Shown: positions 34,440-42,965 of the stretch, piece after piece
Layout: the number at the start of each line of letters is the position of its first letter
How positions within the stretch are numbered: the first letter of the stretch is position 1
Assembly: GCA_902806175.1 (NCBI GenBank)
Contig: CADCVQ010000171.1
Location: 1 to 42,965 of the forward strand
Length of the DNA: 42,965 nt
Direction of reading: 5' to 3'
Source: an uncultured Solirubrobacteraceae bacterium
Lineage (GTDB): Bacteria; Actinomycetota; Thermoleophilia; Solirubrobacterales; Solirubrobacteraceae
Translations under genes and position numbers: made by a program
The notes under the pieces: model-generated
Database searches by the model: none
What the model was told of the DNA's origin: nothing
The model's input: the letters and a program-made list of their open reading frames with translations, nothing else

Positions 34440-39155
<4,716 letters not shown>

Positions 39156-39157
39156 CG

Positions 39158-41743
<2,586 letters not shown>

Positions 41744-41769: not shown

Positions 41770-42252
41770 GTGACGCAACCGCTGACGTTCGCTCCCTCCG
41801 CCGGCGCCTTCGAGTTGCGCCGCGCGGATGGCGTCGTCGGCCGGATCGTCACAGAGGGAGATCTCGGCGCCCGCGCCGAGGTCGGAGAGTCCAGCTGGCG
41901 GCTGACGATCGAGGGCGACCGGGAGGCGCTCGCCGCGACCTGGCAGGTCGTCGCACGCGACGCCGCCGGCGAGGAGGCCGCGTGCTACTACCACGGCAGC
42001 ATGCGCGGCGGCCGCGTCCGCATCGGCGACCGGACCGCGAGCCTGCGGCGCGAGCTGGGGCTCGCCACCGAGTGGCGCCTTCGCCTGCGACCCGACGCAG
42101 CGCTCACGCTGCGCCCGACGCCGCGGCCGGAGGGCATGCAGCTCGACATCGCCTTCGTGCCTGGTAGCGCGGGGGTCCCGGACCTGCTGCTGCTGGTCGT
42201 GTGCTGGAGCATCGTCGCCGAGGAGGCGGGGCCCGCGCGGCTCGGCGCGTGA
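41770..42252 (+). CDS. Conserved-looking small protein of unknown function
   Basis: 160 residues from a GTG, 26 bp after gyrA and possibly on its transcript. It is β-rich in pattern: FELRRADGVVGRIV, SSWRLTIEGDREAL, RDAAGEEAACYYHG and LATEWRLRLRPDAAL. A hydrophobic stretch near the end (PDLLLLVVCWSIVAEEAG) could be a buried strand or weak anchor. I do not recognise the family. Codon use and GC look like its neighbours. Confidence 0.6.
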   Translation: MTQPLTFAPSAGAFELRRADGVVGRIVTEGDLGARAEVGESSWRLTIEGDREALAATWQVVARDAAGEEAACYYHGSMRGGRVRIGDRTASLRRELGLATEWRLRLRPDAALTLRPTPRPEGMQLDIAFVPGSAGVPDLLLLVVCWSIVAEEAGPARLGA

Positions 42253-42324
42253 CCCTCAGAGCCCGACACGCCAATTCGTCGCGGTAGGTGCGCACGTGTC
42301 GTCGGGGTCCGCTACGCTTTTCTC

Positions 42325-42550
42325 ACCAGAGAAAGGAGGTGGTCCGAATCAGCTCAAGTTCTTGCGGGACCCTGGAGGTGCTCGGCCGCTAGGTCGGGAG
42401 GCTGGCTAGACCAGCGAATCCAAACCGGGCCACCCCTGAGCCAGGCGCCGGATTGGTCCCACCGGCAGTCAGTACGAAGGTCTAGCTCGGGTTAGAAGTC
42501 CAGTCAGAAGTTGCGAAGGGCGCCGTCGATGCGGCGCCCTTCGTGTGTTC
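42325..42550 (+). ncRNA. Candidate structured RNA with anti-16S element and terminator
   Basis: A -10-like TACGCT (42313-42318) precedes about 225 nt without a credible gene and ends in a strong terminator hairpin (42514-42543). AGAAAGGAGGTGGTCC (42330-42345) complements the 16S rRNA 3' end over 16 nt with one G-U pair, an extended anti-SD complement. GGTGGTCC (42338-42345) can instead pair with GGGCCACC (42427-42434), hiding that element. A small hairpin GCTGG/CCAGC sits at 42401-42415. A 17-codon frame from GTG (42339-42392) overlaps the element too closely to have its own ribosome site. The sequence may be a known actinobacterial RNA, but I cannot name a family. It could also be an unannotated leader. 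Confidence 0.5.
42514..42543 (+). terminator. Rho-independent-type terminator hairpin
   Basis: CGAAGGGCGCCG / CGGCGCCCTTCG, a perfect 12-bp stem with a 6-nt loop, followed by tgtgttct. It closes the candidate RNA and faces the convergent collagen-like gene, so it may also block read-through from the other side. Confidence 0.8.
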
Positions 42551-42567: not shown

Positions 42568-42965
42568 TCAGCGCAGCCGCAGCGCCACGCGCTCGCGGTT
42601 GGACACGGCGCCCGCGCAACGCGCGGTCTGCGACACGCGGGCGCGGTAGACGTAGGTCGCGCGCGGTCGCGTGCGCAGAGAGAGGGACCCAGCGGAGGAC
42701 GTTCGCCGGTCGGCGAACGTCTTGAACGTGACCGAGGCAGGCCGGCGCCGCTGGATCTGCACGAGCTGCCGGGCCTGACAGCCGGCGAGGTCGGCGAAGG
42801 CCTCCAGGCGTACCCTGAGCGTCAGCCGCCGGCGCGCGCGCAGCGTCGCGTGGCTCACGGCAAGCTCGAGCGTGCGGCCGGCTCGCGCGGCGACGACGGC
42901 GTCACCGGGCGGGCCCGGCTGCCCGCCTGGTCCCTGCGGACCGCCCGGTCCCGCGGGCCCGGGCG
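42568..42965 (-). CDS. Collagen-like repeat protein, N-terminus beyond window
   Basis: The frame runs from the right edge to a TGA at 42568 (132 residues seen). The visible part begins with Gly-X-Y triplets (GPA GPG GPQ GPG GQP GPP GD) typical of bacterial collagen-like proteins. After the triplets, a C-terminal domain of about 110 residues has ATLRARRRLTLRVRLEAF, SVTFKTFADRRTSSAG and RATYVYRARVSQTARC, with two Cys (in LAGCQARQ and TARCAGAV) that could form a disulfide. This suggests a surface-exposed or secreted protein with a β-rich end domain. A GTG at 42858 is only an internal codon; the true start lies outside. Convergent with the candidate RNA. Confidence 0.65.
   Translation of the reverse strand, partial: PGPAGPGGPQGPGGQPGPPGDAVVAARAGRTLELAVSHATLRARRRLTLRVRLEAFADLAGCQARQLVQIQRRRPASVTFKTFADRRTSSAGSLSLRTRPRATYVYRARVSQTARCAGAVSNRERVALRLR

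What the first reader, a model, noticed from the sequence alone, without database searches (positions are those of the whole stretch)
42313..42550. Candidate RNA with extended anti-16S 3' end complement
Seen: 16-nt complement to the 16S rRNA 3' end (AGAAAGGAGGTGGTCC, one G-U), with a possible sequestering partner at 42427-42434 and a strong terminator. No credible start codon follows at the right distance. Inference: an RNA that contacts ribosomes or a riboregulator whose SD is hidden; or a relic of a leader. The extended match is longer than normal SD sites.
Basis: partly seen in the sequence, partly recalled or inferred. Interest (0 to 1): 0.55.

Follow-up and report, generated by a model that had tools for sequence, protein, structure and literature searches.

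The report
Structured actinobacterial RNA hides a mini-gene
A small RNA long listed as non-coding carries an unusually strong ribosome-binding site that leads into a tiny reading frame, whose end point, but not its peptide, has been kept across much of the Actinomycetota; this suggests that being translated is part of how the RNA works.

Summary
The 16-nt complement to the 16S rRNA 3' end is real (window 42330-42345) and beyond chance. It lies near the 5' end of a roughly 220-nt RNA gene with its own promoter (-10 TACGCT) and terminator. The RNA is a divergent homologue of Rfam RF02471 (Ms_IGR-5), found in 113 of 296 sampled genomes of the phylum, nearly always as one copy. In 93 of 100 aligned members the 16 nt pair unbroken with 16S, and most changes keep a wobble pair.

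The claim that no start codon follows is not borne out. In 208 of 208 distinct members tested, a start codon (ATG, GTG, TTG, or CTG, ATC, ATT, ATA, ACG) lies 7-13 nt after GGAGG and opens a 10-17 codon frame that ends at one structural site with TAG, TGA or TAA (shuffled loops: mean 50). In the window this is AUC 42348 to UAG 42392. The peptide, and in eight members even the frame of the conserved core, changes; the stop site does not. Covariation supports a new helix P1a and a pseudoknot, and not the pairing that Rfam draws.

Best reading: a translated, structured RNA in which the act of translation matters. Its output is unknown.

The parts
42313..42318 (+). -10 box TACGCT of the RNA's own promoter
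   Evidence: TANNNT starts 19 or 20 nt before AAAGGAGG in 164 of 241 distinct upstream regions; no other offset exceeds 3. The sigma-70 scan listed no promoter here
42325..42546 (+). inferred transcript, about 220 nt, divergent Ms_IGR-5 (RF02471) homologue
   Evidence: promoter position and terminator; RF02471 23 bits, E 0.002 in the window; linking relatives G273 45.5 bits and G025 43.5 bits; ends not mapped experimentally
42326..42329 (+). P1a 5' strand CCAG
   Evidence: pairs with 42372-42375; 99.5% of cells paired, 3 of 4 pairs with changes on both sides in 100 sequences
42330..42345 (+). 16-nt complement to the 16S rRNA 3' tail: extended Shine-Dalgarno (GGAGG at 42335-42339)
   Evidence: 93 of 100 members unbroken over 16 nt with G-U allowed
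42348..42392 (+). short reading frame, AUC start (inferred), 14 codons ISSSSCGTLEVLGR, stop UAG 42390-42392
   Evidence: start and fixed stop site in 208 of 208 distinct members tested; shuffled loops mean 50.1, max 66
42366..42371 (+). pseudoknot strand GGGACC, inside the reading frame
   Evidence: five pairs of it counted against the P5 loop: 3 of 5 with changes on both sides, 28 cells, 94.4% of cells paired
42372..42375 (+). P1a 3' strand CTGG
42377..42380 (+). P2 5' strand GGTG
   Evidence: 98.8% of cells paired with 42431-42434; the next pair is A-T 35, G-C 21, C-G 9, G-T 9, T-A 4, T-G 1 and unpaired 21 of 100
42431..42434 (+).
42435..42441 (+). P6 5' strand CCTGAGC
   Evidence: pairs with 42485-42491; own partners give longer helices than swapped ones, mean 7.8 (n 100) against 6.0 (n 500)
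42447..42451 (+). P5 5' strand GCCGG
   Evidence: all 5 pairs with 42462-42466 have changes on both sides in 100 sequences
42455..42460 (+). P5 loop GGTCCC, pseudoknot partner
42462..42466 (+). P5 3' strand CCGGC
42485..42491 (+). P6 3' strand GCTCGGG
42514..42543 (+). terminator hairpin, 12 bp
   Evidence: T-poor tail, not listed by the scan

Best explanation
This is a stand-alone structured RNA that is translated. Shown by comparison: its own promoter; a 16-nt extended SD for the 16S tail; a start codon 7-13 nt downstream, a weak one in 47 of 208 members and AUC in the window; and a 10-17 codon frame that stops at one fixed site inside the fold. P1a, P2 and the pseudoknot strand lie in or close over that frame. 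Inferred: 30S subunits load through the very strong SD, a ribosome runs the short frame, and its passage and arrest at the fixed stop open P1a, the pseudoknot and P2. The RNA thus exists in a folded, untranslated state and an open, translated state that report how readily initiation happens. What is selected is the act of translation to that point and not the peptide. The target or output of the switch is not known.
For: Reading frame: 208 of 208 distinct elements, shuffled-loop mean 50.1 and max 66; canonical starts 161 against a null mean of 22. In the overlapping set of 227 the triplet at the site is TAG 172, TGA 39, TAA 11, other 5, with no TGG; the frame is open in 222 of 227 against 63 and 105 in the other two frames. 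Peptide not conserved: SSSSCGTLEVLGR, IASRTCEVAAR, YEYRTREVAAG after the start; 8 of 208 read the AGGTG core in another frame yet end at the same site shifted by one base. 16S pairing: 93 of 100 unbroken; 47 A-to-G changes, which keep pairing, against 3 A-to-C/T, all at the outermost base. Structure. Extended SD with non-canonical AUA/AUU starts is reported in Staphylococcus aureus, where G-U could replace A-U (PMC13009471, passages). Ribosome-protected reads on Ms_IGR-5 in M. abscessus and M. smegmatis (PMC4974804, section 9).
Against: No expression or ribosome data exist here for this organism. The AUC start is inferred, not shown. Ribo-seq reads on sRNAs are not specific: the same section reports them for 6C and F6 and says most E. 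coli ncRNAs show footprints. Position 13 of the motif is G in 97 of 100, although A would pair better with 16S, so something beyond pairing strength holds it. One pseudoknot pair is unpaired in 22 of 98, and Rfam's helix still pairs in 92.0% of cells. No output of the switch is known, and neighbours differ between lineages. 183 of 296 genomes had no match under strict filters. The counts are not corrected for shared ancestry, and the start set of eight codons is permissive, which the null of 50 of 208 reflects.
Confidence: 0.68

Rival explanations
1. Dual-function gene: the micropeptide itself is the product and the structure regulates its synthesis.
For: The frame is kept in all 208 members tested, and residues are alike within lineages, such as GTLEV in Thermoleophilia-like members and RTREVAA or WTCEVAA in others.
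Against: Between lineages the peptide changes almost completely, the core is read in two frames, and the shared residues fall on the P1a, pseudoknot and P2 strands, where the RNA itself is constrained.
Confidence: 0.15
2. Non-coding ribosome-masking RNA: the 16 nt clamp the anti-SD of 30S subunits and lower SD-led initiation, favouring leaderless mRNAs.
For: 16-bp pairing kept across the phylum; very stable duplex.
Against: Does not explain the start codons and the fixed stop site in 208 of 208 or the absence of TGG at the site in 227.
Confidence: 0.1
3. Leader-peptide attenuator of a downstream gene, or a relic of one.
For: Short frame, alternative pairings and a terminator resemble attenuators.
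Against: In 13 loci viewed the next likely coding frame downstream is often convergent, and neighbours differ between lineages; in the window it is on the minus strand; conservation is far too high for a relic.
Confidence: 0.04
4. Decoy for C-rich sRNAs such as 6C: the G-rich segment titrates them.
For: The segment is G-rich, and 6C RNA has C-rich stem-loops (PMC8388888, passage).
Against: Complementarity fits the 16S tail over 16 nt including its UUUCU end; the frame is not explained. Pairing with 6C was not computed.
Confidence: 0.02

Closest known systems
Ms_IGR-5 sRNA family (Rfam RF02471)
   Same: Homologous: shared motif, order of elements and P5; the same-family genome G273 reaches the family's cut-off.
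   Different: Window member is well below the cut-off (23 against 45 bits). Rfam draws the SD's GGTCC paired with the GGAC strand; here that pairing shows no compensatory change and 30 of 99 breaks at one pair, while P1a and the pseudoknot covary. Rfam types it as an sRNA gene.
Extended SD with non-canonical start codon (S. aureus infC, cvfC1, ccpN; PMC13009471, passages)
   Same: Start-proximal extended SD pairing together with AUA/AUU starts.
   Different: Those drive ordinary protein genes; here a 10-17 codon frame with no conserved peptide in a separate RNA gene.
Leader-peptide attenuators (recalled)
   Same: Short frame whose translation would decide between RNA folds.
   Different: No shared downstream gene seen; RNA ends at its own terminator in the window.
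Dual-function sRNAs (recalled)
   Same: One RNA with structure and a small reading frame.
   Different: Peptide sequence is not conserved.

Membership tests
Ms_IGR-5 (RF02471) | score over the family's gathering cut-off of 45 bits | tested here: not met
   23 bits in the window; none of 12 close relatives listed at cut-off
Ms_IGR-5 (RF02471) | homology by linking members | tested here: met
   same-family G273 reaches 45.5 bits; R1, built from 29 close relatives, matches high-scoring RF02471 genomes G133, G290 and G331 but under strict filters not G098, G207 or G155; searched directly, the elements of G098 and G207 (L038, L039) match at 40.3 and 43.7 bits
Ms_IGR-5 (RF02471) | Rfam first helix (GGTCC with the GGAC strand) | tested here: not met
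   no pair with changes on both sides, 30 of 99 unpaired at one pair, though the alignment was fitted to it
Ms_IGR-5 (RF02471) | expressed as a small RNA | not testable with these tools
   reported in M. smegmatis, S. lividans and S. avermitilis (passages); not tested in this organism
Leader-peptide attenuator | conserved regulated gene downstream on the same strand | tested here: not met
   13 loci viewed, mixed orientation of frames judged coding by GC bias; of 10 neighbour proteins from 7 loci, nine hit nine different kinds of domain and one none
Dual-function sRNA | conserved peptide | tested here: not met
Dual-function sRNA | reading frame translated | tested here: inconclusive
   comparative evidence strong; no ribosome data for this organism, unspecific reads in mycobacteria

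The most novel reading that the evidence does not exclude
A widely conserved actinobacterial RNA gene that works as a translation-state switch: a reading frame with no conserved message, behind a maximal 16S-complementary SD and often a weak start codon, uses the ribosome itself as the ligand that opens a covarying pseudoknot, so the RNA senses initiation capacity for the cell.
Probability: 0.35. Interest if true: 0.88.

Novelty: new variant of a known kind. Interest (0 to 1): 0.68.

Why it matters
An RNA kept in nearly all sampled members of two genera that are probably Mycobacterium and Streptomyces (38 of 40 and 40 of 41; names inferred) is filed by Rfam as an sRNA gene. Showing that it is translated to a fixed point without a conserved peptide would recast it, give a testable role for it, and offer a case in which a ribosome acts as the ligand of an RNA switch. 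The extended 16S pairing with weak start codons also bears on how start codons are chosen in bacteria where leaderless mRNAs are common, as in mycobacteria (PMC4633059, title and passages).

Tried and rejected
A purely non-coding 16S clamp was my first working model; it was dropped when start and stop codons emerged. Rfam's helix between GGTCC and GGAC was tested and rejected on covariation. The single-sequence minimum-energy fold (z -2.43, 4 of 200 shuffles as low) does not match the covarying structure and was not used. Extension of the match into the 16S trailer was checked and is absent. A compensating change of the 16S end in the three genomes whose motif begins with T or C was sought and not found. 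A first ORF recount with a faulty P1a filter gave 145 of 145 and was replaced.

Exceptions, in full: in the 227 set, five have no stop at the site (L173 with CAG, which stops one codon later; L277, L281, L282, L283, which use another frame) and five have an in-frame stop between SD and GAGGTG (L047, L168, L267 and L280, where it lies before the start; L282). The 208 set holds only elements with an exact 4-nt P1a complement. Selection: A2 used 100 of the loci at hand (17 of 30 close relatives, L205-L276, and 11 others); the 120 pattern-found loci were not used for motif conservation, since the pattern fixes part of it, but were used for the frame and promoter counts, and seven of them in the alignment for model R2. 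R2 rests on sequence; its RNAalifold structure of 3 pairs is not P1a. The pseudoknot columns were chosen after looking at the loops. Of 296 phylum genomes 183 had no match; I did not find out which groups lack it. RF02471 rang in 0 of 14 control genomes, which are not named to me.

Literature: 10 full-text searches; none of the listings or passages that I saw describes a reading frame or a 16S complement in Ms_IGR-5. Thirteen papers were seen as passages, one of them with one whole section (PMC4974804); none was read whole. The original report of IGR-5 (Li et al. 2013) is not held.

Full report
What was claimed and what is there. The complement is at 42330-42345. The 16S end was sought with patterns that fix GGATCACCTCCTTTC. 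In 21 of 61 relatives (22 loci) the next base is T and then AGGG or AAGG; in 21 of 40 further genomes (34 places) it is T and then AAGG in 33 and GGAG in 1. The window's own assembly gave no 16S end. With that tail all 16 nt pair, one as G-U, and pairing ends at the presumed mature 16S end. In the window the next best complements are 12 and 11 nt, and 40 Markov simulations gave maxima of 10 to 14.

Surroundings. Upstream on the same strand lie gyrB, gyrA (39158-41743) and a 160-aa frame (41770-42252) that, among the loci held, has a relative only in G002. Of 250 loci with the element, 47 had a gyrA match, 46 on the same strand; L032 has it on the other strand, and the close relatives L014 and L033 showed none in the stretch held; some loci repeat one place. 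By their titles the named ones among these 47 are mostly Solirubrobacterales and kin. The next frame downstream in the window is on the minus strand. A -10 box (TANNNT) lies 19 or 20 nt before AAAGGAGG in 164 of 241 distinct upstream regions, and at no other offset in more than 3, which puts the 5' end at about 42325; a 12-bp hairpin ends the unit.

Family. Rfam's RF02471 (Ms_IGR-5) matches the window at 23 bits against a cut-off of 45, and none of 12 close relatives was listed at the cut-off. In 296 phylum genomes RF02471 matched 68 at E up to 0.01, 25 of them over the cut-off, among them the same-family genome G273. A model from 29 close relatives matched 89 of the same 296, and a model of the 5' domain from 88 members matched 113 of 296, with one match each except two in G279, a genome of 7% contamination. 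In the window's family it matched 56 of 61 genomes and 25 of 25 genera; in the genera of G098 and G248, which I take from their RF02471 scores and genome sizes to be Mycobacterium and Streptomyces, 38 of 40 and 40 of 41.

The 16S complement is under selection. In 100 members 93 have an unbroken 16-nt complement with G-U allowed, six have 15 (three of these through a gap or a cut end) and one, L045, has 12. At the five A positions 47 changes are A to G, which keeps a wobble pair, and three are A to C or T, all at the outermost base. G, T and C positions hardly vary. One point speaks against pairing strength as the only force: position 13 is G in 97 of 100, though A would pair better.

Structure. 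P1a (42326-42329 with 42372-42375) has 99.5% of cells paired and three of four pairs with changes on both sides. A pseudoknot between GGGACC (42366-42371) and the P5 loop (42455-42460), counted over five pairs, has three with changes on both sides in 28 cells and 94.4% of cells paired, although the alignment was not fitted to it; one of its pairs is unpaired in 22 of 98. P5 has all five pairs changed on both sides. For the whole structure 97.3% of 1768 cells pair, shuffles give 80.1%, and slid versions 31 to 49%. The helix that Rfam draws between the SD's GGTCC and the same GGAC strand has 92.0% of cells paired but no pair changed on both sides and 30 of 99 unpaired at one pair, although the alignment was fitted to it. 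P2 ties GGTG (42377-42380) to CACC (42431-42434); the next pair is A-T 35, G-C 21, C-G 9, G-T 9, T-A 4, T-G 1 and unpaired in 21 of 100. P6 is supported by longer helices with own than with swapped partners.

A reading frame. In 227 distinct elements the triplet at a fixed site after GAGGTG is TAG 172, TGA 39, TAA 11, AGG 4, CAG 1, never TGG; the frame back to the SD is open in 222, against 63 and 105 in the other frames. In-frame canonical starts 4-17 nt after GGAGG occur in 178, CTG/ATT/ATC/ATA in 44, neither in 5; two of those five have ACG at spacing 8 and three use another frame to the same stop site. A recount on 208 distinct elements that keep an exact P1a complement gave 208 of 208 with a start 7-13 nt after GGAGG and a stop at the site (9 nt after AGGTG in 199, 8 in 8, 12 in 1), against a shuffled-loop mean of 50.1 and maximum of 66; starts were TTG 94, ATG 53, CTG 20, ATC 19, GTG 14, ATA 3, ATT 3, ACG 2. 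Eight read the AGGTG core in another frame and still end at the site. Eleven loci of divergent members were fetched; ten showed the element. Of these, L319-L322 and L329 are in the 208, and L328 repeats L283. L323-L326 were read by eye only: each has a start 8 or 10 nt after GGAGG and an open frame to a stop 8 nt after the core, or 11 nt in L324. L327 was not resolved. The window has AUC 42348-42350 and UAG 42390-42392, ISSSSCGTLEVLGR. These counts are not corrected for common descent; but all three stops occur within the window's own family (L001 TAG, L019 TGA, L029 TAA).

How it works. Shown by comparison: extended SD, start, fixed stop, P1a, pseudoknot, P2, P5, promoter. Inferred: ribosomes load by the extended SD, run the frame, and by doing so open P1a, the pseudoknot and P2, whose strands lie in or over the frame. 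Because the peptide is not kept and the stop site is, I think the act of translation is what is selected. Precedent for the initiation part: in S. aureus start-proximal extended SD pairing goes with AUA and AUU starts, and G-U can replace A-U there (PMC13009471, passages). Ribosome-protected reads were reported on Ms_IGR-5 in M. abscessus and M. smegmatis, but the same section reports them for 6C and F6 and says that most known E. coli ncRNAs show footprints (PMC4974804, section 9). Transcripts are reported in M. smegmatis, S. lividans and S. avermitilis (passages). Output and target are unknown.

What it is and is not. It is homologous to Ms_IGR-5 but below that model's cut-off, with a different first helix and a reading frame. 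It does not look like an attenuator of a fixed gene: neighbours and orientation differ (13 loci; of 10 proteins from 7 loci, nine with different domains and one with none). In 10 paper searches I saw no description of this frame or of the 16S complement, with the limit that the original IGR-5 paper is not held.

Noticed in passing
window 34752-39155 (+): The gyrB frame of 1467 aa carries a long insertion before [13 protein letters not shown] that looks like an intein (family recalled, no search run).
   Followed up: no
window 41770-42252 (+): A 160-aa frame between gyrA and the RNA; among the loci held a relative was found only in G002 (L011, 73% identity).
   Followed up: partly
window 42568-42963 (-): Convergent frame, open at the window edge, with collagen-like GPPG repeats at its N-terminal side.
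   Followed up: no
L129: A contig labelled Acidobacteriota MAG carries the element; mis-binning or transfer not examined.
   Followed up: no
L251, L264 (variable loop): In one lineage the start ATG lies in a possible local hairpin (CAATGA...TCATTG), a possible extra control of initiation; seen by eye.
   Followed up: no
L058 1501-1515: The window's own assembly holds one GGATCACCTCCTTTC match, which I judged by eye to lie outside rRNA, and no 16S end by pattern; the 16S gene seems missing from this assembly.
   Followed up: partly
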